IMG/VR virus record: IMGVR_UViG_3300050014_000293
Location: 1-38,239 of that record
Length of the DNA stretch: 38,239 nucleotides
Strand: one strand, 5' to 3'
From: a virus
The position numbers were made by a program, and so were the translations under genes. This document shows, in pieces, positions 3,270 to 28,806 of the stretch (position 1 is its first letter; the number at the start of each line of letters is the position of its first letter). Under the pieces are notes generated by a model, which did not search any database, had not been told where the DNA came from, and saw only the letters and a list, made by a program, of their open reading frames with translations.

Positions 3270-3766
3270 CAGACTAACTGGTAGGAGATGTGGCCGTTGG
3301 CAGCGCCGGTGACGGTGGTTAGGTTCAGGGCCTCGTTAACCGCCGTTTCAATCAGGCCCTCGGGGCAGTATGGGGATGCACCCGAAGCGGCTACGTAGTC
3401 CATCGCTCCACTTTTGGCCGTGGTGGCACTCTTCCACTCGAACGACCCAGCGCCATGTCCAATGATCGTATACTGGATAACCCTGATCTTGTGCGTGGCG
3501 TCAGCAGCGACGATTGCCCCGGTCGCATTGGCGGCTACGGCTACGACGGCCTGGAGAGTTGCATAGAGAGGGACTGTGGTGATGTCGGGCAGTTCCGTGA
3601 GCGATACCGGAACGGGGTCAGCGCGGAGTTCAGTGTCGGTAAGAGCACCGCCACCGCCGCTCGCTTCATTGCCGACATACACAACTTCAGCGAACGTCCC
3701 GTCGCCCATGTCCTTCCAACGGCGGGACATCTGTATCGGGTAAAGCTTCTCAAGCAGGTCAGCCAT
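3269..3766 (-). CDS. Tail-associated hypothetical protein, 165 aa
   Basis: The ATG at 3766 is preceded by GGAGACTTGA. The N-terminus (MADLLEKLYPIQMSRRWKDM) is followed by a beta sandwich-like region (HKIRVIQYTIIGHGAGSFEW; GLIETAVNEALNLTTVTGAA) of the kind seen in small phage tail-tip and decoration proteins. The last residues (NGHISYQLV) end in a strand. No family name can be assigned by eye. Confidence 0.6.
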   Translation of the reverse strand: MADLLEKLYPIQMSRRWKDMGDGTFAEVVYVGNEASGGGGALTDTELRADPVPVSLTELPDITTVPLYATLQAVVAVAANATGAIVAADATHKIRVIQYTIIGHGAGSFEWKSATTAKSGAMDYVAASGASPYCPEGLIETAVNEALNLTTVTGAANGHISYQLV

Positions 3767-3776
3767 TCAAGTCTCC

Positions 3777-4400
3777 TTAAAAGACGGGTTCAGGCAGCAG
3801 TAGGCCGCCGCGTTTGGGCAGGATGAGTCGGTCGGAGCGTGGCTCCCAGTTGGAGTGCCACTTGAAGGAGTTCAGCCACCAGGCGAGTTTGCCAATGCCG
3901 GATGCGGATACCGCCGTCGCCGTGCAGTAGATACTGAGCAGTTCCGCTCCGTCGAATAACACTGATCCGTTAAGTGGATTCTGGGCCCCGTCGCTGTAGG
4001 TGTCCGTCTCTACGTGGTCAATTCCGCCCGTGGCGACGTAGTACATATTGAGCCCCGCAGCGTTTGCGTCACCTTGGCCCCCGAACCAGTAATCACCAGC
4101 AGGGACCGCGAGGATGCTCCCCGTGGGAGTTTTCCACCCGGCCGCCGCACTGTCGGCCACCGCCAGAGCGTCGGTCACACCAACCAGTGTGGAGGGCTTG
4201 CCAGCCGCCCCGTCCGGCTTGTAGATACCGAGTCGGCAGTTGCAGGCCACGTGTCCGCTGCCCACGTTGGACAGGTAAACGTTAAACGCGGTCAGGTCGG
4301 AGGCGGCGGCAAGGGTGAACTTGCCCATCCACCAGACGTTGGCTTGTCCGTTGGCGCCGACAGATGTGCCTGCGATGGAGTTGTTGCCGAAGACGGGCAC
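3777..4400 (-). CDS. Tail-associated hypothetical protein, 207 aa
   Basis: It starts with GTG three bases after the upstream stop. The product begins MPVFGNNSIAGTSVGANGQA and is beta-rich (WWMGKFTLAAASDLTAFNVY; GDYWFGGQGDANAAGLNMYY), ending with a basic/hydrophobic tail (RSDRLILPKRGGLLLPEPVF). The N-terminal region resembles jelly-roll-like modules that describe carbohydrate binding in tail proteins, but I cannot name a family. Position among tail-tip genes suggests a receptor-binding accessory. Confidence 0.55.
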   Translation of the reverse strand: MPVFGNNSIAGTSVGANGQANVWWMGKFTLAAASDLTAFNVYLSNVGSGHVACNCRLGIYKPDGAAGKPSTLVGVTDALAVADSAAAGWKTPTGSILAVPAGDYWFGGQGDANAAGLNMYYVATGGIDHVETDTYSDGAQNPLNGSVLFDGAELLSIYCTATAVSASGIGKLAWWLNSFKWHSNWEPRSDRLILPKRGGLLLPEPVF

Positions 4401-4403
4401 TGG

Positions 4404-5571
4404 CTAGACCGATTTCCCGTTCCAGGTACAGTTGATGCAGGTCGCTTTTCCTTCCAGGAACCGCGCCCCGCCGGTGGCGGTGACGTTCTCAAGAGTGATT
4501 GAGGACGCGCCACTATAAACCTTGAAGGCAGCTTCGGTGGTCTTGGCAATATTGAGGACCGCATTGCGAATCGTCACCTGCGACCAGCCGTCACCGATGA
4601 CCACACCGTTTTGCACGTTGGCTGTGAGGCCGTCAAAGAGGATGTCAGACGAGGGCGTAGAGGCCCCGGCGTCCATATACATCTGGAGCGACCAGGAGTT
4701 GCCCCCGGTCAGTGTGGTGCGGACGAACTTCAGGTCGTGGTTGTTGCCCTCCAAATAGAGGACGTGGGGCGCGAAGAAGCCGGTACTCACAGTCGTCAGG
4801 GCTTCAAGGTTGACGTCTTCAAAGTAGCCCGTCGCAAGGTTGCTCACATAGATGCCCTGGCCGGCACCGCGAACGGTGAACCGGCGCATATCGAGGTTCG
4901 ATCCCAGGGTGTCGATCTTGGCCCCGTACTGGCCGTTGAGACTGAGCACGTCGGATATCTTGCCGTTCGTGTGCCGGGTCAAATGCAGCGGGATAACGCC
5001 ATTGTTGGCCCCGCCGCCATCAAGGGTGACACCCGAGAGTGCAAAGTCGGTGATGTTGTAACCGAGTACGAGGTCGCCCGCACCCGTGCGTCTAAGGATA
5101 GTCTGCCCGATGCCAGCGCCCTGAACAGCCACGCCGCTCTTGAGGTTGATGGCGGAGGTAAAGGTGTAGGTACCGGCCGGGATGATGACCGTTCCCCCGG
5201 GTGCTGTGGCGTTGATGGCCGCCTGAAGGTTAAACGGCGCCGGAGAGGTCGTCGTTGTCGTGGTCGGTGTCGCGGTCGTCGTTGTGGTTGGAGCGACGGT
5301 AGTTGTCGTGGTCGGTGTCGCGGTTGTGGTTGTGGTCGCGGTTGTGGTCGTGGTAGGCGGGATTGTGGTGGTGGTCACGCCTTGCAGCGCCGCCACCTGG
5401 GACTGCAACGTTGCCACCTGCGCTTGTAATTGCGTCACGGCCGCCTGAAGCTGCTGGAGTTGTTGAGCGGTCGACCCGGACAGCGTGATCGTCGCGTTGT
5501 GGCCGCACCCTGAAATGAAAAGGCCACCCGCAAGGATGGCCAGGATGCCGAATATGAGGATGAGTCTTCAC
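4404..5571 (-). CDS. Beta-helix lipoprotein-like tail or surface protein, start disrupted by a frameshift
   Basis: The frame open from the signal region to 4404 has no start codon with a ribosome binding site. A GTG at 5571 has AGGAGG eight bases upstream but lies in another frame. Skipping one base (A at 5565) joins them and gives MKLILIFGILAILAGGLFIS followed by GC, a perfect lipoprotein signal with lipobox FISGC. The next part is a coiled coil (QLQQLQAAVTQLQAQVATLQ), then a Thr/Pro-rich linker, then a right-handed beta-helix (PGGTVIIPAGTYTFTSAINL; LSGVTLDGGG). Without the shift only an in-frame GTG at 5438, inside the coiled coil, is available. It may be a sequencing error, a decayed gene or programmed +1 shifting. 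Confidence 0.6.
5249..5378 (-). repeat. Thr/Pro-linker tandem repeat
   Basis: A low-complexity tract of GTCGTTGTCGTGGTCGGTGT-like units (plus strand) encodes runs of Thr with Pro/Ala/Val (TTTTTATPTTTTTVAP). Copies are imperfect and of variable length, so the tract is probably prone to slippage. Confidence 0.7.
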
Positions 5572-5583
5572 ACTGGAGGCCTC

Positions 5584-7416
5584 CTAAAGCCCGGTGTATG
5601 TCTGCGATTCGATGGCGGTACCAGCCCCGTCAACGCTCCAATGCCGCGGGTAGAACTGCACGAGGCAGAGAGTGGGGACAACGGTTGGGTCATGCAAGAT
5701 ACTGAGGTAGTTGTTGCCCGGCAGGAGCACGAAGTTGGAGAGGTCGCTCCCCGGCGCCACGAATCGCATGAGGTTCGCCCGGGCGTCTGAGTAGACCTTG
5801 CCGGTATCGGTGTCCACGTACAGCGTTTCCCCTGCCGAAAGCACGAGCCCCTTGAAGTAGATGGCCTGCCCCGTGCGCTCGTTGCGGATCCCGCCCACCA
5901 ACGTTGGAGCGTTGCCAGCACCGAATACCACGAGCACTGGGCAGGGTGCCGTGCCGGTGTAGGCCACGGTGATTGGCGTCACGTAGGCATTGGCTGATGC
6001 GGTGGGCCCGGCGATGAGCAGAATGGAGTCGTCGCGCGGGTTGACCATCACCCGGCAGTACGATCCGGTGTCGGCAATGGCGATATTCTCCACGTGCATG
6101 GCCGAACCGTCGTAGACGACGTAAGCGGCATAGCCCAGAGCCCCAGGGATGGCGTTGAACACGTTGCCGGTCATGGGATCGCCGGCCAAGGTGTAAATGA
6201 ACCCCGTGCAATGGGCATTGCCTATTGAGTCAAATGCAATGGCGCGCCCTTGGGAGGCGTTGGTGTAGCCGTAGAGGTCCTGTGAGCCGGTGGGTGACGT
6301 ACCTTGGCTGTTGGTCACGGTGACATCGACCGTACCCCCGGCATGGGCGGGAGCGATACAGGTGATCTGGGTGACAGAGTTGATCGTGACTCCGGTGGCC
6401 GCGTTGCCTCCGAAGCTCACTGTCGAGCCCGCGATGAAGCTGGTCCCGTTGATGGTGACGAACGTCCCGCCCGCAGTCGATCCGCTAGACGGGCTGAGTG
6501 ACGTTACGGTAGGAGCGGACTGGCCATAAGTGAACGAGCTGTAAGAGCCGGTGCCGTAGGCGGTGGTGACCGCCACGGCTACTGCCCCGGCCGCTCCCGG
6601 CGGCGTTGTCGCTGTGATCTGCATGTCGGAGTCGATTGAGAGTGCGCTGGCGGGCACCCCGCCGAAGGTGACGGCTGTAGCGCCGGTGAAGCCCGCTCCC
6701 GTGATGACAACCGAAGTCCCACCCGTAGTGGGGCCGCTGCTCGCGCTCAGACTGGAGATTATCGGTGCGCCCAGCGAGTAGGTGATGATGACCTTGCCGT
6801 CGGCGCCATTACCGCCCGGGCCGCTGTAATCATAGCCGCCGCAGCAACCTGCACCCCCACCGCCCCCTGGACCGGATACCGGGGCGTTTCCGGGAGTGAC
6901 GCCCGGGCCCGCACCCCCAGCGCCACCTGGACCGCCACCGGTGGGAGCGGTAGCGCCGGCTACTTGGTTGGCGGGTGTGCTGTTGCCGTTCGCCGCAGAG
7001 CCACCCGAGCTGCCGCCGCCGTTTCCAGGGCCGTTGCTGACTGTAGGCGTCCCGCCGTTGCCGCCTGAATATTTGACATCTCCCGTACCGGAGGCAGCAG
7101 CGCCCCCGACGCCCGTACCTAATCCGCCTTTGGCCACGCATGTTGAGGTGTTGAAACTGCTGTCGCCGCCATTGGTGCCGCTGGGGGTGCTGGTGCCATG
7201 AGCCCCTACAGTCAAAGAATAAGATGCCAGTAAAGCCTGGAAGGCGTTGATCTTGGAGTAGCCCCCCGCCCCGCCGCCGCGGCCATCGCCCGATCCACTT
7301 CCCAAACCCCAGGCGCCCCCCGCGCCGGCGCCGATAGTCTCAATCTGTACCTGGGTGACGTTGTTCGGTCGCGGCCAGGTGAAAGTACCAGCCGTCGAAT
7401 ATGTGGTCACGGTCAT
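5584..7416 (-). CDS. Gly-rich, TIG-repeat tail protein with Dit-like C-terminal half
   Basis: The product is 610 aa from the ATGA overlap at 7416 (GGAGG six bases upstream). After a beta N-terminus (MTVTTYSTAGTFTWPRPNNV) there is a Gly-rich region (about 30-215) such as those in phage tail-fibre adhesins. Two IPT/TIG domains follow (ISSLSASSGPTTGGTSVVIT; VTSLSPSSGSTAGGTFVTIN). The C-terminal 200 residues resemble the galectin-like C-terminal half of Dit proteins (NAPTLVGGIRNERTGQAIYF; AGETLYVDTDTGKVYSDARA; SNFVLLPGNNYL). Together with the preceding gene it would make up one Dit-like baseplate hub. Confidence 0.65.
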   Translation of the reverse strand: MTVTTYSTAGTFTWPRPNNVTQVQIETIGAGAGGAWGLGSGSGDGRGGGAGGYSKINAFQALLASYSLTVGAHGTSTPSGTNGGDSSFNTSTCVAKGGLGTGVGGAAASGTGDVKYSGGNGGTPTVSNGPGNGGGSSGGSAANGNSTPANQVAGATAPTGGGPGGAGGAGPGVTPGNAPVSGPGGGGGAGCCGGYDYSGPGGNGADGKVIITYSLGAPIISSLSASSGPTTGGTSVVITGAGFTGATAVTFGGVPASALSIDSDMQITATTPPGAAGAVAVAVTTAYGTGSYSSFTYGQSAPTVTSLSPSSGSTAGGTFVTINGTSFIAGSTVSFGGNAATGVTINSVTQITCIAPAHAGGTVDVTVTNSQGTSPTGSQDLYGYTNASQGRAIAFDSIGNAHCTGFIYTLAGDPMTGNVFNAIPGALGYAAYVVYDGSAMHVENIAIADTGSYCRVMVNPRDDSILLIAGPTASANAYVTPITVAYTGTAPCPVLVVFGAGNAPTLVGGIRNERTGQAIYFKGLVLSAGETLYVDTDTGKVYSDARANLMRFVAPGSDLSNFVLLPGNNYLSILHDPTVVPTLCLVQFYPRHWSVDGAGTAIESQTYTGL

Positions 7417-18505: not shown

Positions 18506-19255
18506 TTAGACCGGGACGCGCTCCCAGCTATGCTTGCCCTCGGACGTGATGCCCATTGCCAGAGCCTCTTGGGTAGCCAGAGCGAACGCGTGAGCCTGAG
18601 CAGCCTGGGCGTCTCCGCCGGCGGCGAGAGTGGCGGCCTGCAGGCGCGCCATGGGCGTCATGTTGCCGTCCATCAGAGCCTTGCTGATGGGGTCCTCAAC
18701 CTTACCCTGGTCGGCGAGGTTCGCAGCGGTCGGAAGACCGCCGATGTGGTTGGGACCGGAAGCGAGAGGCTCGGCATCAACGGCCTTGCCTATGGGGGTC
18801 GCGGCGGCTCCGGTAACGGCGGCCATGATGTCGTCTTTGATCGTGGCGATCTTGGCATCGGTGTGAGCGGCGGCGGCATTGACTGCGCTGGAGATGATTC
18901 CCTGCACGTCAAGCCCGGCCACACCAGCGGGAGCGCCCGGCTGACCCGCGATACTCATGGCGGCCACGGCTTTGGCGACTGCCTCCTGAATGGCGATAGT
19001 CTCCTGAGCCTTGGTCATGGTGGACTCGGTGCTCGGAGTGCTCACGGTGCTTTCGGTGCTAGGAGTGGAGGCGTCCGTGCTTGCGGTCGAGGAGGCCACA
19101 GTGCCCGTCAACACCTGGATGGCGGCCATTGCCTGAAGTTCCGCGTCGGTCGGGCTCGAATCCTGCTGCAGCAGTTCCAAGATACGGCCCAAGGCGCCGG
19201 ACATATCGCCCTTGGCGATGTCCATTGCAAGGCTGAGCGTTTTCTCAAAATCCAT
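18506..19255 (-). CDS. Nested scaffold protein from internal start
   Basis: Inside the protease gene an in-frame ATG at 19255 is preceded by AAGGAGAACAGGAAC, the strongest ribosome binding site in the gene. The 249-aa product starts MDFEKTLSLAMDIAKGDMSG and is dominated by helix-forming Ala/Gln/Glu with a Ser/Thr repeat (STASTDASTPSTESTVST). The arrangement matches lambda C/Nu3, where a scaffold is encoded by the 3' part of the protease gene. The start is seen in sequence; the role is inferred. Confidence 0.6.
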   Translation of the reverse strand: MDFEKTLSLAMDIAKGDMSGALGRILELLQQDSSPTDAELQAMAAIQVLTGTVASSTASTDASTPSTESTVSTPSTESTMTKAQETIAIQEAVAKAVAAMSIAGQPGAPAGVAGLDVQGIISSAVNAAAAHTDAKIATIKDDIMAAVTGAAATPIGKAVDAEPLASGPNHIGGLPTAANLADQGKVEDPISKALMDGNMTPMARLQAATLAAGGDAQAAQAHAFALATQEALAMGITSEGKHSWERVPV

Positions 19256-20368
19256 GTTCCTGTTCTCCTTGGTGATCGCTTGCTTGAGTTGAACTTTGCC
19301 GTCGGTTGATTGGTAGGGTTTGCCGAAGTACGAGCTGGCCTTGAGGGCGATGCGGTTGCCGATGGTGGCCCACTCCGCGTCGGAGTAGCCCTCCTTGCCT
19401 CTGCCAGCGTTGTAATAGGCCATGGCCGAACGAGTGCGGCCTTTGCTGTCGATGGGCCACTTATGGTTGGCCGGATCGGCGTAGTTGTCGGTATTCTGTC
19501 CGTGGGGGAAGCCCTTGGGAGCGGTCTGAGGCGCGCCCTCCTTTTTGGGGATGGCGACCTTGCCGAAGGGCGCGTCGGTCTCGGTCACGGGAACGAACAC
19601 GGTTTCGGGTGCGACCTCAACCGCATCGGCGAAGGTGAAGGCGCCGTCTTTGTCCACGGCATAGCTGGCCTGGTACATAGTCGGGGGCTCCGGGGCAACC
19701 TCGCAGTCATCGCAAGGACCCAGCCTGGTGTAAATCACCCAGTCCGGACCCCAGTCACGCACATACACCGCATCATCGATTAGGTCACAGAGGGCGTCTT
19801 CCAACGCGCTCCTGAGGTCGTCATAGCTGCCGTCCGCTTTGGCGATGTCCCCTTCCGGCGCCTCGGGATCATCGGGGTCAAAGAACTTAACCAGGGTAAA
19901 GCGTGCATCGGGGCAGGCGGGGGTATCGACAAGCGAGACTTCGCTGATAAAGATTTTGTCGTATACCTTCGTACCATCGGGATCGTAGTGAAAGGAAAGC
20001 CCGCGACCACCGATAGAGAAGCCCTTCAGAGCGTTTTCCTGGCACTTGATAAGGCAGTCGCGTCCATCTGTGGACCGTGAGAGTTTGACTCGATTCATGA
20101 CGCCGGGATGCCCGGATTCGGTTGTGTCCTCCCACCAACTATCGAACGTTCCGACCACCTTTGGCAGATGCATTTCGTGAACTCCAGGCCCATTCCGCGC
20201 AGCCGCCTCGGCGAAGGCTTCTTTTGCGACAGAGAGCGGCACACGCTCGCCTTGCAGGTCGTTCATCTCGGCGGTGGAAAAGCCCTCAACTGTTCCCGTT
20301 TCCGCATCTATTTTGGAAAAGGGCACGTACAGTTGAATCGGATAGGATTGATCGGTGGTTCGCTTCAT
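18506..20368 (-). CDS. XkdF-like prohead protease with C-terminal scaffold region
   Basis: The product is 620 aa from the ATG at 20368 (GGAG 11 bases upstream); the upstream frame overlaps the HNH gene. Residues 1 to about 190 form an XkdF-type protease: YPIQLYVPFSKIDAETGTVE, VHEMHLPKVVG with the candidate His, ALKGFSIGGRG with the candidate Ser, and ISEVSLVDTPACPDARF. A linker (YQASYAVDKDGAFTFADAV) and a small helical domain (GFPHGQNTDNYADPANHKWP; AMAYYNAGRGKEGYSDAEWA) follow. From residue 372 the protein is Ala/Ser/Thr-rich and helical, as in scaffolds, and probably also made from an internal start. It sits right before the major capsid gene. Confidence 0.8.
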   Translation of the reverse strand: MKRTTDQSYPIQLYVPFSKIDAETGTVEGFSTAEMNDLQGERVPLSVAKEAFAEAAARNGPGVHEMHLPKVVGTFDSWWEDTTESGHPGVMNRVKLSRSTDGRDCLIKCQENALKGFSIGGRGLSFHYDPDGTKVYDKIFISEVSLVDTPACPDARFTLVKFFDPDDPEAPEGDIAKADGSYDDLRSALEDALCDLIDDAVYVRDWGPDWVIYTRLGPCDDCEVAPEPPTMYQASYAVDKDGAFTFADAVEVAPETVFVPVTETDAPFGKVAIPKKEGAPQTAPKGFPHGQNTDNYADPANHKWPIDSKGRTRSAMAYYNAGRGKEGYSDAEWATIGNRIALKASSYFGKPYQSTDGKVQLKQAITKENRNMDFEKTLSLAMDIAKGDMSGALGRILELLQQDSSPTDAELQAMAAIQVLTGTVASSTASTDASTPSTESTVSTPSTESTMTKAQETIAIQEAVAKAVAAMSIAGQPGAPAGVAGLDVQGIISSAVNAAAAHTDAKIATIKDDIMAAVTGAAATPIGKAVDAEPLASGPNHIGGLPTAANLADQGKVEDPISKALMDGNMTPMARLQAATLAAGGDAQAAQAHAFALATQEALAMGITSEGKHSWERVPV

Positions 20369-20387
20369 AGGCGATAACTCCAGTCTG

Positions 20388-20942
20388 CTAGAAAAGCCGG
20401 CCACAATATTCCATGGGATGCTTCGCCCCTTTAACGACGTTGCAGAGGGGGCAGGCAATCACGAGGTTAGAGGGATGGTTGGACCCGCCAAGAGCGAGTG
20501 GCACTACATGGTCCACGTGGTAATCCTGGCCCACCCTTTTGCGGCAGTAAAAGCAGCGGCCCTTCTGGCGCTTGTATTGAGTCTCTATGTCTTCGGGGGT
20601 AAAGGCCCCATCGGCCCCAAACTCCCGCGCTCTTCGTTTTTGGTTTCTCGCCTTGAGTGAATCGAGATGAGTAAGCCGGTATTCACGCTGGTATGCCTTG
20701 ATTGACTCGCAATTTTCGGCGTAGTAGCGGCGCTTCTGCTCAAGTATGTGTTCGTGGCTCTTTTGGTAGCGCCGTAAATCGTATTCCCTGAAAAGCTCGG
20801 GATTTCCCTGCCTTCGTTGCTTCTGGTTCGCGCTAGCACACTCTCGGCATTCTGACCGAAGATACTTGCGGCCGTTCGGGTGAAAGAACTCCGCCGTGCG
20901 AGGAAGTTCGCGCCCGCACCTAGTGCATTGCTTAGTCTCCAT
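20388..20942 (-). CDS. HNH endonuclease with N-terminal zinc ribbon
   Basis: The product is 184 aa. The zinc ribbon CTRCGRELPRTAEFFHPNGR ... CREC is typical of phage HNH proteins. A basic helical linker follows with many Arg, Lys and Tyr (QREYRLTHLDSLKARNQKRR). The HNH core is CFYCRKRVGQDYHVDHVVPL, ALGGSNHPSNLVIACPLCN, KGAKHP, with the HVDH pair, Asn and paired Cys intact. The gene is inserted between the neck gene and the protease-scaffold gene, behind a terminator and an inverted repeat. It is likely a free-standing homing endonuclease. Confidence 0.88.
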   Translation of the reverse strand: METKQCTRCGRELPRTAEFFHPNGRKYLRSECRECASANQKQRRQGNPELFREYDLRRYQKSHEHILEQKRRYYAENCESIKAYQREYRLTHLDSLKARNQKRRAREFGADGAFTPEDIETQYKRQKGRCFYCRKRVGQDYHVDHVVPLALGGSNHPSNLVIACPLCNVVKGAKHPMEYCGRLF

Positions 20943-20972
20943 TGGCTTCTCCGAGCCCTCCGCATTAAGACA

Positions 20973-21030
20973 CCCGGCAGGCAGGGAGGCGGAGACTCTC
21001 CTCTTCGCGTGGCCACGCTAGCCTGCCGGG
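20973..21030 (-). repeat. 10-bp perfect inverted repeat upstream of HNH gene
   Basis: CCCGGCAGGC (20973-20982) and GCCTGCCGGG (21021-21030) are perfect inverted repeats 38 nt apart. The enclosed sequence is purine/pyrimidine-biased (GGGAGGCGGAGACTCTCCTC). It lies 31-88 bp upstream of the HNH start. It could be an RNA stem, an operator or the trace of a mobile element. Confidence 0.5.
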
Positions 21031-21238: not shown

Positions 21239-21622
21239 TTACGACTTGATAGCCTGCGCGAGCCCCTTGCGGAACCCACTCTCGATAGCCTTCTTGATCT
21301 CCTCGAGTTTGCCCGGCCATCCTGCCCAGAATTTCGTCCCGGTGAGGACGTACTGGCCGTAAGACATCGAATAGAGAGTCAACTCGCGGCCGGTCTTGGT
21401 GACGACGTAGGACGGGGCCGGTTTTGAGGCAAAGTTGCGCGTGCGCTTGTAGGGAGACACAGCGCGACCATCGGCACGGTATGGGGAGGCTTGACCGGGA
21501 TAGTTACCGCGTTCGCCTACATAAGCGACGCCTGAAGTGATGAGCGCCTTGTCAATGACACCCTTGAAGTCCTTCATGAATCCGGCTTCCTTGACGCTCA
21601 CGTTGAGATTGAAGAGCGCCAT
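21239..21622 (-). CDS. Neck/minor structural protein (HK97 gp10-like candidate), 127 aa
   Basis: The ATG at 21622 is used (AAGGTGAGG upstream); a TTG at 21625 would also overlap the previous stop. The product has a helical N-terminus (FMKDFKGVIDKALITSGVAY), a central basic region (SPYKRTRNFASKPAPSYVVT) and a C-terminal amphipathic helix (KLEEIKKAIESGFRKGLAQA). The size and helix ends resemble HK97 gp10-like neck proteins, but similarity by eye is weak. It is followed by a 296-bp non-coding region. Confidence 0.5.
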   Translation of the reverse strand: MALFNLNVSVKEAGFMKDFKGVIDKALITSGVAYVGERGNYPGQASPYRADGRAVSPYKRTRNFASKPAPSYVVTKTGRELTLYSMSYGQYVLTGTKFWAGWPGKLEEIKKAIESGFRKGLAQAIKS

Positions 21623-22446
21623 CAATCCTCACCTTCCTGGAGCTCGTCACCATCGCTCACGTCAAACGTGATGCCATATTGATCCATGAGGGCTTGGCCC
21701 TCGGCTTCGTCGCCGGGGAGAGTTATGCCTTGCCCACAACGACATCCGACATGCAGGGGCGGTGGGTCATCACCCGGGCCGAACTCCTGCCCGTCCAGCG
21801 CCATGCACTCCTCGCATTCGTAGTCGTCTTCCGAACCTTGCCAAACCCAGGTGTCCGCGCCAACCTGCTCCATCATGAGGTCGACGTTGGCTGAGGCCAT
21901 GCGGGTTGTCTCGGTCGTGGCGATTGCAGCGGCTTTCCAACTGCCCAGCGCATTCTGAGCGCTCAGCCGGAACGCCAGGTCGCTTGTGCCCTCCTCAGCA
22001 TCCGCGAAAAACGTGGAGAGCGATTCCTGGATCCGGTCGGTCGCGGTCTGGCCCACGTCCTTGAAGCTGCCCTTGACCATCTTGCCGGTCTTGTCGCGCC
22101 ACTTGAAATTCTTCAGGTAGCGCTGGTAGAGGGCGTCGGGCTGGATGTCCTGCCAGGTAGCGGCTTTGGCGATGCGTTTGGTCGGTCGCTTCCACCAGGC
22201 GTTCTCAGCCGCCGCGATGATTCGGGCAGCTTCAGTAGCACCCGCCTCCAGGCCTGCGACGATGGCTGACTGCACATCGCTCTTGACCTTGGCAGACAGC
22301 AGCGGATGTTTCTTCACCTCATCGAAGCCGGACTCGACCACCTTCCATGCGGCGTTGTATCCCGCCATGGCCTTTGCCTGGTAGGCGCGCTCGGCTTTTA
22401 GCCGGGCCTGTTTGACGCCGGGGCGGTTGGAGCCGATTACGGGCAT
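21622..22446 (-). CDS. Mu gpF/SPP1 gp7-like head morphogenesis protein
   Basis: The product is 274 aa, with a GAGGAAGATG site before the ATG. The N-terminal two thirds are helical (KAERAYQAKAMAGYNAAWKV). The C-terminal Mu-F domain has the diagnostic Cys/His arrangement: DDYECEECMALDGQEFGPGD, then PPPLHVGCRCGQGITLP. The preceding AIATTETTRMASANVDLM matches the A-x-T-E-[TV]-x-R segment of the family. These minor capsid proteins sit inside the head near the portal. Position directly after the portal fits. Confidence 0.9.
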   Translation of the reverse strand: MPVIGSNRPGVKQARLKAERAYQAKAMAGYNAAWKVVESGFDEVKKHPLLSAKVKSDVQSAIVAGLEAGATEAARIIAAAENAWWKRPTKRIAKAATWQDIQPDALYQRYLKNFKWRDKTGKMVKGSFKDVGQTATDRIQESLSTFFADAEEGTSDLAFRLSAQNALGSWKAAAIATTETTRMASANVDLMMEQVGADTWVWQGSEDDYECEECMALDGQEFGPGDDPPPLHVGCRCGQGITLPGDEAEGQALMDQYGITFDVSDGDELQEGED

Positions 22447-22449
22447 GGG

Positions 22450-22620
22450 CTATTCATCTTCCTCATCTTTGTGCGACAGTACGGTTTCGTACATCGCTTT
22501 TATGTCGGGATCGTCGATGTATCCCAGCAGCAGAATGGCAGCCCAGTACCACCTGTCACGCGACAATGGTTGGCGAAGCTCGGACAACTTATCGAGCAGC
22601 TCTTGCTTACGAAGGTTCAT
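22450..22620 (-). CDS. Small hypothetical protein, 56 aa
   Basis: A 57-codon frame (including stop) starts 3 bp after the upstream stop and ends 3 bp before the ATG of the Mu-F-like gene. The product begins MNLRKQELLDKLSELRQPLS, continues RDRWYWAAILLLGYIDDPDI and ends with an acidic tail (KDEEDE). It is helical with one hydrophobic stretch. Its ribosome binding site is weak. No family is recognised. Confidence 0.6.
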   Translation of the reverse strand: MNLRKQELLDKLSELRQPLSRDRWYWAAILLLGYIDDPDIKAMYETVLSHKDEEDE

Positions 22621-22623
22621 AGG

Positions 22624-22884
22624 TCAGGCTTGCTCAAGCGAACAGTCCGCCCGACCCACAGACAGCCAACGGCCGGGGGCGAATGTCTGAACCACTACGT
22701 TGTTCGTCCCCAGATGCAGATGACCGCCCGGGTCGATCTGGTAGCCGCTACCGAAGAAGCTCAGTTCTTCCTGTCGGTCGTCACGACCGAGCACCACCAG
22801 CCGGTAATGGGTGAGTTGTTGCTTCTGCAGCAGCGGAACAGCTCCGATAGTAGCGCCGCCTGGTTGATGACCGTTGTTGCTCAT
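22624..22884 (-). CDS. Hypothetical protein, 86 aa
   Basis: It starts with ATG after AAGGGGAGAG. The product is beta-rich (LTHYRLVVLGRDDRQEELSF; GGHLHLGTNNVVVQTFAPGR) with no catalytic signature. It lies between the portal and a small helical gene in the head module, so it may be a minor head component. No family is recognised. Confidence 0.65.
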   Translation of the reverse strand: MSNNGHQPGGATIGAVPLLQKQQLTHYRLVVLGRDDRQEELSFFGSGYQIDPGGHLHLGTNNVVVQTFAPGRWLSVGRADCSLEQA

Positions 22885-22901: not shown

Positions 22902-25223
22902 CTACTTGCGCTTGCGCTTGGCGCGGTTGCCCTTGGTCAATTGCTCCCCGGTACCTACCGGCTCATCTGTGAGCCTGGTCTCCCCGGTCTCCGGTTGGTC
23001 AGTGGACGCGATGAGGAGTCCACCGGCGGACAGGACAGTGCTGAGCCGCTCACGGGCCAGCGTGGTGGCATTCGAGCCCACTAGGTGCTCGATGGTCTCC
23101 CACAAGTCCATGTCGTTAGCCACGCGCTTCAGAGTGGCGAGAAGGTCGGGCCCCAGAGGAGCATCGACGTACCGGTCCACAAACGGGCTGAAGATGCCGA
23201 GGTTGGTGGTGGGGAACGTGAGCCCGTTGTCAATCATGACCGGGCGTTGCTCGTCATATGGATGCGTCAGCCAGTTGCCCCAGTGGCGGTCTCCCTGGCC
23301 GGCGATGTAATCCAGCACAGCAGCGCGGCTGCACCAGTAGTCAGAGTACGCCGCCACCGACGGCTCGGCGGGCTTGAAGGCGTCACGGACGAAGTACAGT
23401 ACCGCGCCCATGTCGCCCTCTTCGGTCTTAGTAACGTAGGCAACCGGCACGAGGTAGAAGCCCAGGGAGCGGTCCAGCAGATACGCCGCCTGCTCACGGA
23501 AAGCCTGGAAGCCCCCCACGCGTTTGATGAGCTTGGGATTCTCACCGGAGACCGGTTTCCACACACCCGGCCACATCGGTAGACCCTCGGGGCACATGGC
23601 CACAATCTCAACCTCGTTGGCATGTCCGCCCGCGGGCCACTCGACAGAGCCGGGAGCGACGATAGGAGCCATGTAGTACAGGTCATCGTCCGGAGTGCAG
23701 CCCGTGACCTTCTCCAGCTTGGCGGTCACGCCTTTGACGATATCGCCCATGAAGATAGTCGTTCGTCCGGGGGTGAGTTTGCCCGACTCGATAACGGCCT
23801 TGGCCGTGGTGGAATCCTGGGTGGTCGTCTCCGGCTGCTGGTCTATGGCGCCGTCTACCTCAGCCTGAGCCTCTAGGTCCCCAGGAGCGCCCAGCCACAC
23901 AACCTGACCGCCACGGATGACCATGTACACCTGCCCCTTACCATCGGGCATTGGGTCAAGGCCGTAAGCTATGCGCACGTTGTCAAGGGCGCACCCGCCC
24001 GACTGGAACAGCTCCAGCATGGCTTTCTGCTGCGCGCCAGGGTCGGAGGTTGTGCCCGGAAGGGCCAGTTTGAATTGACGGCCATCGGCCCCCAGTTTGT
24101 CCAGGAAGTCTTGCCCGGCTGCTTCGATGTGCATGGCTATCGGACCTAAGCCCATGCGGAACAACGACTGGGCCATAGCGTCCTCAAAGCCCTTGCCGCC
24201 TAAGCCGCGCCCCGGGACCTTGGCGAGCTCAGATATGGGCAGGCCGTGACAAAAGCTGAGGTTCGCGAACGCCTGATTGTATTGCTCGGCAGGCCACTCC
24301 GGGCTCTTGGTCTCTTGCCAGTGGGCCCCGGCCCAAGGAAGGACGTGCATACGCATACGTTCGGCTGGGTTGGAGCTCATCAGGCGGTTGTAAGTCCGCT
24401 CCCACTGCACCACCTGGTCGGGAGTCAGCTGGGTGTCTCCGCCGGGGATGAGGAACGATTCGGGAAGGTTTCCTTCGCGATAGTAGGCAAGACTGAAAGC
24501 CTTGATATCGGCCAGCAGCAGAATGTCACTCCAGGCCTTCTCAATGGGCGACTCGCCATAGGGAGCGTTTTCGCGCAATGAGCGCGGCTTGTACCATATC
24601 TGGTCAGCGGTCCACCACCCGAACGCTTGGCCCTTGATTACCTGAACGAACGCAGGGCTCTCGCCCTTGGGCGTTCCGCCGTGCTCATCCACACACACAA
24701 AGATGGTTGAGCCGTCCATGGTGACGAGCGCTTGGTTGCGGAGGTCGTGGTAGCAGCAAGGGGCATCGTAGATCAACAGACTGCGCAGGAAGCGGCCCAT
24801 CCACACGGGCCACGGTAGAACCCTGTCGGGCTTCTGAGCAAACCACCAGAAAGGACCGTCCGGCCCTTCAGCGTTGCCGTCTCTGTCCACGATCCGCGGG
24901 GTGTAAATGGTCATCTCGGCGGTGAGGATGCTGTCTATCATGGCGATTTCAGAGACGAGGCTATAGGCATCCTTGATCTGCTCAAAGGCGGTGAGGCCGA
25001 AATGGACGCGAGGCATGATGCTGATGTTGGCCGCGAAGGGGTAATCCATTACCCGCGGCGTCAACTCCTCGTAGGGCTGCGACACCGGCCGGATAGGTCC
25101 GCCCGGCCCCATAGTGGCATTCGCCCACGCCGGGGGAAGCGGTTGGTCGATTAGCGGTTGCGGAGCCGCCGACATGCCCAGGGCCTTACCGATGCCTGAC
25201 AGGAGTCCCACTAGCGCCCCCAC
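22902..25223 (-). CDS. Portal protein fused to a PI3/4-kinase-like domain
   Basis: The product is 773 aa, much longer than usual portals (about 400-550). Residues 1 to about 460 form an HK97-type portal (YPFAANISIMPRVHFGLTAF; PYGESPIEKAWSDILL; YREGNLPESFLIPGG; SFCHGLPISELAKVPG). Residues about 490-735 form a kinase-like domain: VWKPVSGE with Lys556, helix-borne Glu577 (FREQAAYLL), the catalytic loop GDRHWGN at 644-650, and the metal-binding MIDNGLTFP at 663-671. This layout matches PI3/PI4-kinase-like proteins (GDRHxxN then IDxG) and actinobacterial relatives that share the YKPxxGE motif. All key residues seem present. The basic tail is KGNRAKRKRK. The start is GTG at 25223; a GTG at 25211 is possible. 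Confidence 0.85.
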   Translation of the reverse strand: MGALVGLLSGIGKALGMSAAPQPLIDQPLPPAWANATMGPGGPIRPVSQPYEELTPRVMDYPFAANISIMPRVHFGLTAFEQIKDAYSLVSEIAMIDSILTAEMTIYTPRIVDRDGNAEGPDGPFWWFAQKPDRVLPWPVWMGRFLRSLLIYDAPCCYHDLRNQALVTMDGSTIFVCVDEHGGTPKGESPAFVQVIKGQAFGWWTADQIWYKPRSLRENAPYGESPIEKAWSDILLLADIKAFSLAYYREGNLPESFLIPGGDTQLTPDQVVQWERTYNRLMSSNPAERMRMHVLPWAGAHWQETKSPEWPAEQYNQAFANLSFCHGLPISELAKVPGRGLGGKGFEDAMAQSLFRMGLGPIAMHIEAAGQDFLDKLGADGRQFKLALPGTTSDPGAQQKAMLELFQSGGCALDNVRIAYGLDPMPDGKGQVYMVIRGGQVVWLGAPGDLEAQAEVDGAIDQQPETTTQDSTTAKAVIESGKLTPGRTTIFMGDIVKGVTAKLEKVTGCTPDDDLYYMAPIVAPGSVEWPAGGHANEVEIVAMCPEGLPMWPGVWKPVSGENPKLIKRVGGFQAFREQAAYLLDRSLGFYLVPVAYVTKTEEGDMGAVLYFVRDAFKPAEPSVAAYSDYWCSRAAVLDYIAGQGDRHWGNWLTHPYDEQRPVMIDNGLTFPTTNLGIFSPFVDRYVDAPLGPDLLATLKRVANDMDLWETIEHLVGSNATTLARERLSTVLSAGGLLIASTDQPETGETRLTDEPVGTGEQLTKGNRAKRKRK

Positions 25224-26575
25224 ATCTTCCGCGCGTTGGCTTTCATGACTTCCTCCTCATAGGTGATCTCAGCCGGAGCGTCAATATCGGCGGTGCCGTT
25301 GCGGAGCTGTTCAAAGCGCTCAAAGTCGGATTCATCCCAGGTGGCATGGCCCGTGAGACCAATCGCCAGGTATCTGAGACTGTCGGCACGATGGAACGAT
25401 GCCTTGTCGGCTATATCGTTCGTGGGCTGTCCGCTGTCGTCGACCTTGCGCCGATAGCTGCCCAGCTCATCTCTGAGCCCGGCGAGCGAATCGAACACAA
25501 ACAGTCGACGGGTTTTGAAGAACCCTATCACCCGGTCAATACCAATCTCCACATCGGCCACCAGCGGACGCTGCAGGGTGATTCCCTCTGCCTGCCAGTC
25601 GCGCCGCCATTGTGTTTCGGACTGGGAGCCGCCCCAACCTCCACAGGCATTCACGCCTTCAAGGTCGCTCTTGACCCGAGCGACATGCTCCCTGGTGGTG
25701 AGACTGCCTTCCAGCGATTCTCGGTAGAGGTAGTAGACGTTGGCAGCAGGATCGTGCGCCAGATAGAGCACGGCGGTATTTGCCCCGCCGAAGTCGACGC
25801 CAACATATCGAGGCCACTCAGCGGGCAATGCAAACGGCTTGACTAGGTGCCCGCCCTCTTCGCGGCAGCAGTCAGTGAAGTCCTCGTAAATAAGCCCCGC
25901 CGGACGGGAGAACTCGCCACAGTAGAACATCCTGTACCTGTATTCGGGCAGTGAAGCCTTGGCCCGCTCCATCTCTGCTAGCGGAAAGGCTGGGTTCTCT
26001 GTGCTGGCAAACTGCACTACCGCGTAATCCTCGTCGCCATCGCGCCAGCGGTCGTATACCTGGTTCTTAAGCCACCCCAGGTTGTAAGGCGTCGTGGTGA
26101 TGAGTGCTCGTCCCTGGTGCAGCGCCAGACGCCGCAAGATGGCCTCCCACGACTCTAGGCGGAATTGATCCTGCCCGGCTTCATCGAGCCACGCCGCTTT
26201 TGCGGTTGCCGATTCTAGCGATTCCGCGTTGGTTGCCGAGCCGAAGATGACTCGGGTCTTGCCGTCCTTGAAGTAAAAGCACTTTGCCGTTTCGCGCCAT
26301 TCCCCCAGGTGGAGAGTGTGCTCGAACAGCCGCCTGAACTCCGGCAGCATCTTGAGATTCAGCAGCGGGAATGAAGCCGTGATCGCCAGGTAGTCGCCCG
26401 GCCCCTTGTTTTTGATCTCGTTCAGGAGCCAGATAGGACCTAGCGCCGTCTTCCCGCTTTGGGTGCCAGAGAGCATGAGAATGAAACGACGCGAGCAGCG
26501 GTAGACTTCCGACTGCCCCCGGTGAAGGTTAAAGTGGAGATCCCCCTTCGCATCCGTCCACGTCAGCTCCGGCAC
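25211..26575 (-). CDS. terL: Terminase large subunit
   Basis: The product is 454 aa and starts with GTG after GGAGGCGACTA. The N-terminal packaging ATPase has a Walker A-type P-loop, GTQSGKTA, near residues 37-44, and a Walker B, AAWLDEAGQ, with the adjacent acidic pair. The C-terminal RNase H-fold nuclease has VGVDFGGANTAVLYL with the first metal-binding Asp, and a late acidic site around HRADSLRYL. It uses ATP to drive DNA into the prohead and cuts concatemers. The stop overlaps the portal gene. Confidence 0.95.
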   Translation of the reverse strand: MPELTWTDAKGDLHFNLHRGQSEVYRCSRRFILMLSGTQSGKTALGPIWLLNEIKNKGPGDYLAITASFPLLNLKMLPEFRRLFEHTLHLGEWRETAKCFYFKDGKTRVIFGSATNAESLESATAKAAWLDEAGQDQFRLESWEAILRRLALHQGRALITTTPYNLGWLKNQVYDRWRDGDEDYAVVQFASTENPAFPLAEMERAKASLPEYRYRMFYCGEFSRPAGLIYEDFTDCCREEGGHLVKPFALPAEWPRYVGVDFGGANTAVLYLAHDPAANVYYLYRESLEGSLTTREHVARVKSDLEGVNACGGWGGSQSETQWRRDWQAEGITLQRPLVADVEIGIDRVIGFFKTRRLFVFDSLAGLRDELGSYRRKVDDSGQPTNDIADKASFHRADSLRYLAIGLTGHATWDESDFERFEQLRNGTADIDAPAEITYEEEVMKANARKMWGR

Positions 26576-26915: not shown

Positions 26916-26990
26916 TCACGAAGTTAGTTTCGGTTCCAGGCCCATGCCAGCGAGGCGCTCCAGAGTGACGGCCACGTACTTGGGCTCTAA
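26916..26990 (-). pseudogene. Stranded original 3' end of the methyltransferase gene
   Basis: Read on the minus strand this segment encodes EPKYVAVTLERLAGMGLEPK followed by LTS and a stop. Over 17 codons, 15 residues match the current methyltransferase C-terminus (EPRYVAVTLERLSGMGL), while only about 35 of 51 bases match. It ends 18 bp before the small-terminase ATG, which is the close spacing expected if the methyltransferase once ended here. I interpret it as the ancestral 3' end cut off by insertion of the HNH gene, whose cassette brought a replacement end. No start codon or ribosome binding site serves it. Confidence 0.75.
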
Positions 26991-27008
26991 TGTCTGGTGT
27001 GCTATACT
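26980..27008 (+). promoter_or_regulatory. Promoter for the HNH gene, probably leaderless
   Basis: TTGGGC (26980-26985) and TATACT (27003-27008) are spaced by 17 bp, close to the sigma70 consensus. The -10 ends six bases before the ATG at 27015, so transcription would begin at or within a base or two of the start codon. The -35 lies in the old methyltransferase 3' remnant and the -10 lies in the inserted segment. Confidence 0.65.
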
Positions 27009-27014
27009 CGAAGC

Positions 27015-27614
27015 ATGACGGCGAAGAACCGACTCACCAAAACCTGCGCAGTGTGTGGTGCCTCTTTCGAGGTGCCCGTCTACCGTGCCGCTACGGCTCG
27101 CTACTGCTCCAGAGTGTGCCGTGAACATCGCCACCCCGCGAACGAGCGAACGTGCCCGACGTGTCTCAAGCCCTTCGTCACCTACCAGCGCAAACAAGTC
27201 TTCTGTTCCCAGTCCTGCGCCGGCAAGTTCAGGGTAGGACCGTTGGCCGGTCGCTGGAAAGACGGACGGTCCCTGGAACGGGACCGGGCCCGCCTTGGCC
27301 CACGTCTTCGAGAGTGGCGGGAAGCGGTCTACAAGCGGGACGGGTATGCCTGCCAGCGGTGTCAGGCCACCGGGGCGCTCCATGCCCACCATATCCAAGC
27401 ATGGGCCGATCACCCCGAACTGCGCTTTGACGTTGCCAACGGTGAAACGCTTTGCGTCCCCTGCCACAGCGAGTACCACGGCAAGGACTTCAGCAACCGG
27501 CGCACCAAGGTGTGCCCCGACTGCGGAGAGCCGACCAAGGGCAGAGGCAAGGAAGGACGTTGCCGCCCATGCTCGCTTATCCACTGGCACCATCTTCGAG
27601 CAGACAGGGAGTAA
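27015..27614 (+). CDS. Plus-strand HNH homing-type endonuclease
   Basis: The product is 199 aa and this is the only plus-strand gene. Two N-terminal zinc fingers (CAVCGASFEV... with Cys11, 14, 31, 35, and Cys47, 50, 64, 68) precede a basic region and an HNH core: WREAVYKRDGYACQRCQATG, then AHHIQAW, then NGETLCVPCHSEYHG. A last zinc knuckle (CPDCGEP...CRPC) ends the protein. The ATG at 27015 is chosen because the -10 box lies only six bases upstream; an earlier ATG at 26997 would precede the predicted transcript start. The gene is wedged between the methyltransferase and terminase genes in opposite orientation and is flanked by two diverged copies of the methyltransferase 3' end. Confidence 0.88.
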   Translation: MTAKNRLTKTCAVCGASFEVPVYRAATARYCSRVCREHRHPANERTCPTCLKPFVTYQRKQVFCSQSCAGKFRVGPLAGRWKDGRSLERDRARLGPRLREWREAVYKRDGYACQRCQATGALHAHHIQAWADHPELRFDVANGETLCVPCHSEYHGKDFSNRRTKVCPDCGEPTKGRGKEGRCRPCSLIHWHHLRADRE

Positions 27615-28806
27615 GACCCATCCCGCTGAGCCTCTCCAAAGTGACTGCCACATAGCGAGGTTCAATTTCCATGCCGCAACAGACGCGGTTGGTTTGCTCG
27701 GCGGCGACGGCGGTTGAACCAGAGCCGAGGAAGGGGTCGAGTACTGTCCCGTCGACCGCCGTCGACACCGACAGGTAGCGCATCAGCAGCTCCACGGGCT
27801 TCATTGTTGGGTGCTCCCCGTCTCCGCCCGCATCCGCACGGCCCTGCAACTTAGATGACAGGTAGAACTTGGAATACGTAGCCGTTGGCTCAAGGTGGTT
27901 GTTCCACACCCGCCCATCACGACAGAAGAACATCACGTACTCTACGTCGGGCAGGAACGTCTCGTTCGTCCAGGGCGTTGGGTTGGTCTTCGCCCACACC
28001 AGGATGTTGAAGCGGTACCCGTCGAACATCCGCAGATACGCCGGAATCAGGTCTTTGTTGCAGAACAGATACCAGGTCGGCGCGCCGAGTTTTAGCAACG
28101 CCTGGAGCGTGCCCGGGTCGAAGTCGATGATGTCCTTCACGCGCCGCTTGATATTGGCGGTGCTCGCGGAGAAGCACCCCCCCCCGCCCATGTTCATCTT
28201 GTATGGCGGGTCGGTCACAACTGCTTCAGGGATTGCACCGGCCAGTAGCGCATCCATGTCGGCAGACATGTCCCCGCACATCACCCGGTGCCGCCCCACC
28301 TGCCATATCTGCCCGCGCTCCGTCTGCCACTTCTCGCGCAGTTCTTCGGCCTTGTCCATCTGGGCGCCGGGGTCTTCGGGCTTAGGAGGCTCCAGGTACA
28401 ACCCCGCGTCCTTTGCCAACTCCGCGAGCATCTTCTGAAGTCCCGCCTCGCCCGTAGACACCTCGCGCAGCAGGGAGTCCAGAGCTTCCTTGTCTGCCTC
28501 GGCCATGGCGGCGATTGGGTCAAGACTCAGCAGCGCAAGCGCCTCCTTCTCGGGTGCCACCTCCACATACGCCACCGGCACCAGCGCCACGCCTGCGGAG
28601 AGATACTCCTCCACCCTCGCATGACCGTCCAACACGTGCCCCGTTAGTCGGTTGACGATCACGGGAGCGATGATGTCCAGTTCGTTCAAGGAGCCACGCA
28701 GGGCTTCCCTTTGCGCAGCCGGATGACGACGAAAGTTGGACGGATGGGCAAGGAGGCTCTCGGGCGCGACATCGTCCCAGCCCACAATCTTGCTCGACCA
28801 GGTCAC
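27577..28806 (-). CDS. ParB-like/adenine-type DNA methyltransferase fusion
   Basis: The product is 409 aa. Residues about 10-95 form a ParB/Srx-like domain (HPSNFRRHPAAQREALRGSL; HVLDGHARVEEYLSAG). A linker follows, then an N6_N4 methyltransferase: DPPY at 199-202 (catalytic motif IV), HPTMKPVELL, and DPFLGSGST at 357-365 (motif I, SAM binding). The motif order fits the beta class of amino-methyltransferases. It would methylate adenine or N4-cytosine in phage DNA, perhaps against host restriction. It starts with GTG (GGAGGT upstream). Its last codons overlap, convergently, the plus-strand HNH gene by 38 bp, and its C-terminus (EPRYVAVTLERLSGMGL) has a diverged second copy at 26937-26987. Confidence 0.88.
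   Translation of the reverse strand: MTWSSKIVGWDDVAPESLLAHPSNFRRHPAAQREALRGSLNELDIIAPVIVNRLTGHVLDGHARVEEYLSAGVALVPVAYVEVAPEKEALALLSLDPIAAMAEADKEALDSLLREVSTGEAGLQKMLAELAKDAGLYLEPPKPEDPGAQMDKAEELREKWQTERGQIWQVGRHRVMCGDMSADMDALLAGAIPEAVVTDPPYKMNMGGGGCFSASTANIKRRVKDIIDFDPGTLQALLKLGAPTWYLFCNKDLIPAYLRMFDGYRFNILVWAKTNPTPWTNETFLPDVEYVMFFCRDGRVWNNHLEPTATYSKFYLSSKLQGRADAGGDGEHPTMKPVELLMRYLSVSTAVDGTVLDPFLGSGSTAVAAEQTNRVCCGMEIEPRYVAVTLERLSGMGLTPCLLEDGASG

What the first reader, a model, noticed from the sequence alone, without database searches (positions are those of the whole stretch)
22902..25223. Portal protein carries a complete PI3/4-kinase-like domain
Seen: a 773-aa portal whose C-terminal 250 residues hold Lys556 (VWKPVSGE), Glu577, GDRHWGN (644-650) and IDNG (664-667), the residue set of PI3/PI4-kinase-like enzymes. 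Known: portals are normally 400-550 aa and have no enzyme domain. Inference: about 12 portal copies per virion would place kinase domains at the DNA-entry vertex. They could modify capsid proteins, injected-protein partners, lipids or host targets on entry, or act as an anti-defence or regulatory switch in assembly. The domain looks intact rather than decayed.
Basis: partly seen in the sequence, partly recalled or inferred. Interest (0 to 1): 0.9.

Follow-up and report, generated by a model that had tools for sequence, protein, structure and literature searches.

The report
Phage portal protein with built-in kinase
A whole family of tailed phages carries a kinase-like enzyme, related in shape to human PI4-kinases and bacterial HipA toxins, joined to the ring protein through which DNA enters and leaves the virus head; it probably rides inside the virion as an infection tool, a role not yet shown.

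Summary
One 773-codon gene on the minus strand (25223..22902) encodes a portal (best Foldseek match E 9e-14), a disordered hinge, and a complete PI4KII/Fam20/HipA-fold kinase domain (residues 500-745; PI4KII-beta VIA Z 18.1). It is not an assembly artefact. A portal-only search recovered the same clade (21 lineages including the window, SH-aLRT 100), and every complete member has the kinase: fused in 20, in an overlapping adjacent gene in one. Lys556, Asp645 and Asn650 are kept in all lineages but two, which are clear pseudokinases. 'Portals carry no enzymes' is wrong: related portals carry NUDIX, Acb1, InPase, ART or Zeta domains between portal and MuF, and portal-fused enzymes are published. 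What I did not find reported is a PI4KII-like kinase fixed in one portal clade. Most likely reading: a capsid-internal protein kinase delivered or exposed at infection, acting on host or early phage proteins (about 0.42). Main rival: a regulator of head assembly, packaging or ejection. Activity, substrate, virion location and release from the portal are untested. Novelty: new variant of a known kind.

The parts
22902..25223 (-). Portal-kinase fusion gene, 773 aa (GTG start at 25223)
   Evidence: Open frame without stops; same fusion in independent contigs
23892..25223 (-). Portal part, residues 1-444 (confident fold about 70-440)
   Evidence: PHROG 2662 E 7.9e-22; Foldseek to phage 812 and HK97 portals; model confidence
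23727..23891 (-). Hinge, residues 445-499, mostly low-confidence (pLDDT under 50 at 445-466 and from 485); the place where relatives hold DUF5661, 2H, NUDIX, Acb1, InPase, ART or Zeta modules
22989..23726 (-). PI4KII/Fam20/HipA-fold kinase domain, residues 500-745
   Evidence: Model and fold searches; profile against PDB
23556..23558 (-). Codon of Lys556 (ATP-binding lysine by alignment)
   Evidence: Invariant in 16 domains; lost only in L115 and L121
23493..23495 (-). Codon of Glu577 (helix-C glutamate by position)
   Evidence: Invariant in 16 domains; Ala in L118, L123, L127, L128
23289..23291 (-). Codon of Asp645 (catalytic aspartate by alignment with PI4KII DR..N motif)
23229..23231 (-). 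Codon of Asp665 (metal-binding aspartate of IDNG by alignment)
21622..22446 (-). Separate MuF-like minor head protein, 274 aa; in relatives fused behind the portal or behind the kinase
   Evidence: PF04233 E 1.2e-8; matches the C-terminal half of portal PHROG 2662; L094 is portal-kinase-MuF
25211..26575 (-). Large terminase subunit, upstream neighbour
18506..20458 (-). Head protease/scaffold-like gene, candidate for cutting the hinge (inference)
   Evidence: PHROG 9427 head maturation protease E 1.6e-11

Best explanation
The gene encodes the phage's portal subunit with a PI4KII/Fam20/HipA-fold kinase tethered to its C-terminus by a flexible hinge, so that about twelve kinase domains would sit inside the capsid at the portal vertex. 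Most likely it is a virion-borne protein kinase: packaged by virtue of the portal tether, released or exposed when DNA leaves (possibly after hinge cleavage by the head protease), it phosphorylates host or early phage proteins to favour the start of infection or to counter a defence. Shown: fusion, fold, conserved catalytic residues, clade-wide retention, other enzymes at the same place in related portals. Inferred: catalytic activity, protein as substrate, internal location, release, timing.
For: Complete kinase fold with conserved catalytic residues. Closest solved prokaryotic relatives by fold (HipA, HipT, CtkA) are protein kinases, as is Fam20C (activities from general knowledge). The portal hinge of this family is a slot for enzymes of phage-host conflict: Acb1 (anti-CBASS), 2H, NUDIX, InPase, ART, Zeta. 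The kinase lies between portal and MuF in one chain in L094. Portal- and MuF-fused enzymes have been proposed to be packaged and injected (PMC5512222, PMC9503650); SPP1 gp7 is drawn into the procapsid by the portal (PMC6316719). Purifying selection, dN/dS 0.093, in a close pair.
Against: No activity, virion or infection data. The portal stays in the virion, so delivery needs a cut or loosened hinge, and no cleavage site was identified in the window. No free kinase from an internal start. The kinase is constant throughout the clade, unlike swapped payloads, and two lineages keep the domain without catalytic residues, which fits a structural or assembly role at least as well there.
Confidence: 0.42

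Rival explanations
1. Assembly or ejection regulator: the kinase acts in the infected cell or procapsid and phosphorylates portal, scaffold, MuF or capsid proteins, timing portal assembly, packaging or ejection.
For: Found in every complete member of a deep portal clade, fused in 20 of 21 lineages; gene order around it is conserved; made late together with head proteins by its position (inference).
Against: Related portals manage without it. The same slot holds conflict enzymes in relatives. Two pseudokinase lineages.
Confidence: 0.25
2. Mainly structural or binding domain: the kinase fold serves as a capsid-internal docking or DNA-contact domain, catalysis being secondary or vestigial.
For: L115 and L121 keep the domain without Lys, Glu, catalytic Asp and Asn; Ala at the helix-C Glu in four more lineages. 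Phage Mu's MuF is reported to keep an inactive enzyme domain (PMC5512222).
Against: Catalytic residues are kept in all other lineages although the domains are only 39-65% identical to the window's.
Confidence: 0.14
3. Nucleotide or small-molecule kinase against a defence signal or drug-like molecule, rather than a protein kinase.
For: Neighbouring payloads Acb1, 2H and NUDIX act on nucleotides (roles from PMC9503650 and Pfam names); Fam20B-type relatives phosphorylate a sugar (Hydra Fam20, Z 14.6).
Against: Nearest bacterial kinases of this fold with known substrates are protein kinases (general knowledge).
Confidence: 0.1
4. Phosphoinositide kinase acting on the host membrane at entry.
For: Closest solved fold is PI4KII.
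Against: Fold does not give substrate: Fam20C and HipA share it. The domain is probably inside the capsid, and many bacteria lack phosphatidylinositol (general knowledge). Host unknown.
Confidence: 0.05
5. Assembly or sequencing error joining two genes.
For: L102 has the kinase as a separate gene behind a portal-ART gene.
Against: The same continuous fusion in many contigs from different samples, including L090 at 60% (portal) and 65% (kinase) identity.
Confidence: 0.01

Closest known systems
Portal- and MuF-fused head-packaged effectors, 'polyvalent proteins' (PMC5512222) and portal/MuF fusions of Nudix, 2H and ART (PMC9503650)
   Same: Enzyme domain in one chain with a portal or MuF domain, encoded among head genes
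   Different: Kinase of PI4KII/HipA type with complete C-lobe; the kinases described there form another group that lost the C-lobe. Here the enzyme is fixed in a clade and not swapped
Arthrobacter phages Sonali and Mufasa8 portal-NUDIX-MuF protein
   Same: Same portal family, enzyme between portal and MuF
   Different: NUDIX instead of kinase; MuF in the same chain
Haloarchaeal tailed virus protein gp16 (HRTV-2, HSTV-2, HCTV-6; annotated phosphatidylinositol kinase)
   Same: PI3/4-kinase-like domain in a virus protein encoded between head completion and tail completion genes
   Different: Attached to another N-terminal part (shared with PHROG 29056), not to the portal; distant (hhalign E 8e-6 over 66 columns)
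Mycobacterium prophage prophiFSQJ01-1 gene 54 and BFVD kinase-fold head proteins (e.g. Mycobacterium phage Onyinye)
   Same: By eye a kinase-like stretch between MuF-like and ART parts in gene 54; BFVD kinase-fold matches in head morphogenesis, Nudix and ART proteins
   Different: On minor head proteins, not on the portal; not found by the profile built here
PI4KII, Fam20 and HipA/HipT/CtkA kinases
   Same: Fold and catalytic motifs
   Different: Cellular or toxin proteins; substrates not transferable
SCO1664 family (TIGR03843)
   Same: All 16 domains match its N-lobe stretch
   Different: Far below its cut-off (33.9 and 38.6 against 172.4 bits); no known function

Membership tests
HK97/SPP1-type phage portal protein | Portal fold | tested here: met
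   Foldseek to phage 812, HK97 and GTA portals, best E 8.7e-14; PHROG 2662 E 7.9e-22
HK97/SPP1-type phage portal protein | Pfam PF04860 match above cut-off in this protein | tested here: not met
   No PF04860 match for the window protein at E 0.1; relatives match, e.g. L010 49.4 bits
HK97/SPP1-type phage portal protein | Ring of about twelve subunits at one capsid vertex | not testable with these tools
   Needs cryo-EM or purified protein
PI3/PI4-kinase (PF00454) | Score above the gathering cut-off (27.1 bits) | tested here: not met
   23.9 bits
PI3/PI4-kinase (PF00454) | Kinase fold with Lys, Glu, DR..N and D(N)G set | tested here: met
   PI4KII Z 17-18; residues
PI3/PI4-kinase (PF00454) | Phosphorylates inositol lipids | not testable with these tools
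   Needs a biochemical assay
SCO1664 family (TIGR03843) | Score above cut-off (172.4 bits) | tested here: not met
   33.9 bits full protein, 38.6 bits domain
Fam20/HipA-type kinase fold | Same two-lobed fold over most of the domain | tested here: met
   Fam20 Z 14, HipT 13, CtkA 12.9, HipA 10-12 over 186-215 residues
Polyvalent protein (PMC5512222) | Two or more unlike domains in one chain, encoded among phage head genes | tested here: met
   Portal plus kinase in the head module
Polyvalent protein (PMC5512222) | Injected into the host with the DNA | not testable with these tools
   Needs virion and infection experiments; also only predicted for most published members
Kinase group of polyvalent proteins (PMC5512222) | Loss of the whole C-terminal kinase subdomain | tested here: not met
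   Model aligned over both lobes with PI4KII, 223 residues; description
MuF polymorphic toxins (PMC5576092) | Effector domain C-terminal to a MuF domain | tested here: not met
   The kinase follows the portal; the window's MuF is a separate 274-aa gene without another significant domain

The most novel reading that the evidence does not exclude
The kinase is a constitutive, regulated part of the portal: phosphorylation by portal-borne kinases controls a step at the portal vertex (packaging, sealing, ejection or MuF release), with pseudokinase versions in some lineages. That would be a phosphorylation-controlled viral DNA gate.
Probability: 0.15. Interest if true: 0.88.

Novelty: new variant of a known kind. 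Interest (0 to 1): 0.6.

Why it matters
If active, this is a kinase placed by covalent fusion at the one vertex through which viral DNA moves, kept across a whole clade of phages; virion-borne phosphorylation at the start of infection would become directly testable. It also shows that the portal serves as a carrier with a fixed slot for enzymes (kinase, Acb1, NUDIX, 2H, InPase, ART, Zeta), and that the slot can hold a long-term resident as well as changing payloads. The pseudokinase lineages offer natural separation-of-function variants.

Tried and rejected
Assembly or sequencing artefact: rejected by independent contigs with the same continuous fusion. Chance motif match: rejected by profile, fold and conservation. 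Internal translation start giving a free kinase: no conserved start with ribosome-binding site near the domain. Single-protein scans of viral contigs: nothing found. Genome scan for prophage hosts: only a Ca. Hydrogenedentes MAG contig (L103) and a weak Gammaproteobacteria MAG match (L104), so the host is unknown. Known anti-phage defence protein: no PADLOC match. Boundary motif HPR..GEFT as a general cutting site: present in several relatives, absent from the window, so not used. Congruence of portal and kinase trees: only weak (Mantel r 0.24, 43 of 2000 permutations as high; long branches), so strict co-inheritance is not claimed. Literature: no paper found that describes a portal-kinase fusion; absence from this library is not proof. 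The full-length model has low overall confidence (pLDDT 65.8), so no domain arrangement was read from it. Virion mass spectrometry of haloarchaeal gp16: looked for in PMC8651126, not reported there.

Full report
1. What is there. The gene lies on the minus strand, GTG at 25223 to stop at 22902, 773 residues. The upstream neighbour is the large terminase; downstream follow two small ORFs (22624..22884, 22450..22620), a MuF gene, a gene I take by position for an HK97-gp10-like tail completion protein (no family match), an HNH gene, the head protease and a gene matching PHROG 13692 that I take for the major capsid protein.

2. Portal part. Residues 113-461 match PHROG 2662 (portal; E 7.9e-22), a family whose profile covers portal plus MuF: the C-terminal half of that profile matches the window's separate MuF gene. 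The full-length model is confident for about 70-440, and its best Foldseek matches are the phage 812, HK97 and GTA portals. Nearest portals in deposited phages include portal-MuF proteins (Polewnik, THSA-485A) and portal-NUDIX-MuF proteins (Arthrobacter Sonali, Mufasa8).

3. Kinase part. Pfam PF00454 is sub-threshold (23.9 bits) and TIGR03843 (SCO1664) far below its cut-off. But a domain model from 16 relatives (pLDDT 83.6, pTM 0.85) matches PI4KII (VIA Z 17-18), Fam20 (Z 14), and HipT, CtkA and HipA (Z 10-13). Motifs align directly with PI4KII: YLREEAAYLLDRALGFYLVP with YLSEAGAYLVDNKLHLSIVP, DYI..DR..NWL, and IDNGL.FP. So the domain is a complete two-lobed kinase of the PI4KII/Fam20/HipA branch. 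It is not filed as a member of PF00454 or SCO1664, whose cut-offs it fails.

4. It is a real, old fusion. A scan with an alignment of five portals returned six different full-length portal-kinase genes, and a scan with the kinase alone returned more, all in portal genes or next to one, apart from L096, whose 5' end is cut. A third scan with the portal only, without kinase in the query, is the fair test. Every in-clade contig holding a complete portal gene had the kinase: fused in all but L102/L125 (one contig), where it is the next gene, overlapping the portal-ART gene by 8 bases; contigs without it were cut at their ends or lay outside the clade. In a tree of 46 portals the 21 kinase lineages are one side of a branch with SH-aLRT 100; an earlier 81-row tree agrees. 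Sampling caveat: search patterns came from clade members, so divergent in-clade portals without a kinase could be missed.

5. Intact, with exceptions. Catalytic residues are invariant in 16 aligned domains. In the close pair L094/L095 dN/dS is 0.035 in the portal and 0.093 in the kinase. But L115 and L121 have lost the Lys, the Glu residues, the catalytic Asp and the Asn: pseudokinases. Four further lineages (L118, L123, L127, L128) have Ala at the helix-C Glu column.

6. Surroundings in relatives. Hinge and kinase-MuF stretch take up other modules: DUF5661 (L015-L017, L118, L123, L127, L128; weakly L093), 2H phosphoesterase (L014, L093), ART on the portal with the kinase next door (L102), MuF behind the kinase in one chain (L094). 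L095 differs from L094 by about 1.2 kb inserted between kinase and MuF. L100 and L101 are identical over 5.3 kb downstream and nearly so over the portal, yet their kinase C-lobes differ (74 of 119 residues identical), and L100 has an HNH gene directly behind: this looks like co-conversion with a homing gene. In the wider portal family the same slot holds Acb1, InPase+ART or Zeta, each followed by MuF; 27 of 47 members have MuF.

7. Mechanism. The company (anti-CBASS Acb1, 2H, NUDIX, ART) points to infection-stage conflict. SPP1 gp7 (a MuF protein) is drawn to the procapsid interior by the portal, and without it only about 25% of virions are infectious (PMC6316719); portal or MuF fusions to enzymes have been proposed to be packaged and injected (PMC5512222, PMC9503650). 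I therefore favour a capsid-internal, virion-borne protein kinase acting at the start of infection (0.42). Against a plain payload view stand its constancy in the clade, the need for a release step, and the pseudokinases; an assembly or ejection regulator (0.25) or a mainly structural domain (0.14) remain open. A lipid kinase is unlikely (0.05): the site is probably internal and many hosts lack the lipid (general knowledge).

8. Known or new. Enzyme-portal fusions are a known kind, and kinases in polyvalent phage proteins are too. The kinases described there lack the C-lobe; kinase-fold domains in head proteins are visible in BFVD, and haloarchaeal viruses have a relative in the head-tail region. 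A PI4KII-type kinase as a fixed domain of the portal was not found in the searched literature. Hence: new variant of a known kind.

Noticed in passing
L019 7878-10901, L024 1-2862, L052 7869-11306, L054 7896-11411 (+): In related portals without the kinase, Acb1 (anti-CBASS), Zeta, or InPase plus ART domains lie between the portal and MuF in one chain: a general enzyme slot at this place.
   Followed up: partly
L100 2995-6240 and L101 7123-9753: Two phages identical elsewhere have different kinase C-lobes; L100 has an HNH gene (5611-6240, minus) directly behind the kinase. Looks like co-conversion by a homing gene.
   Followed up: partly
L095 9657-10871 against L094 about 1758-1778: About 1.2 kb inserted between kinase and MuF in one of two closely related phages, giving the chain a new C-terminal domain without Pfam match and leaving MuF as a separate stretch.
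   Followed up: partly
L012, L014, L015, L102, L118, L119, L123 (residues): A recurrent motif of the type HPR..(A)G(R/E)F(T/A) marks module boundaries in portal and head proteins; possible processing site or recombination joint. Absent from the window.
   Followed up: no
L115 4974-7073, L121 4977-7115 (+): Portal-borne pseudokinases: the domain is kept but catalytic Lys, Asp and Asn are lost.
   Followed up: partly
window 20388-21028 (-): HNH endonuclease gene (20388..20942) between tail completion and protease genes, with an Rfam int-alpA RNA match just upstream (20962-21028, 38 bits, cut-off 35.8). Relatives L017, L100 and L101 have an HNH gene at the same place but no Rfam match.
   Followed up: partly
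window 26916-27680: An HNH gene on the plus strand (26997..27614; PF01844 E 2.9e-7) lies between two similar copies of the last codons of the DNA methyltransferase gene (..PKYVAVTLERLAGMGL.. and ..PRYVAVTLERLSGMGL..), as if inserted with a partial duplication.
   Followed up: partly
L134 3576-7088 (Mycobacterium phage prophiFSQJ01-1 gene 54): Annotated minor capsid-ART fusion protein; by eye it has a kinase-like stretch (LDWLMGNHDTHAGQF..GIDKGQAF) in the middle. Weak tblastn match (E 2), no match to the kinase profile.
   Followed up: partly
L135 about 3620-4516, L136 about 3467-4552: Distant relatives of the kinase as separate genes on plasmids of Microbacterium and Brevibacterium.
   Followed up: partly
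L118 4592-7771 (+): Behind the kinase this portal has a stretch with an HNHPGGS motif that by eye resembles a JAB-type domain; no Pfam match there.
   Followed up: no
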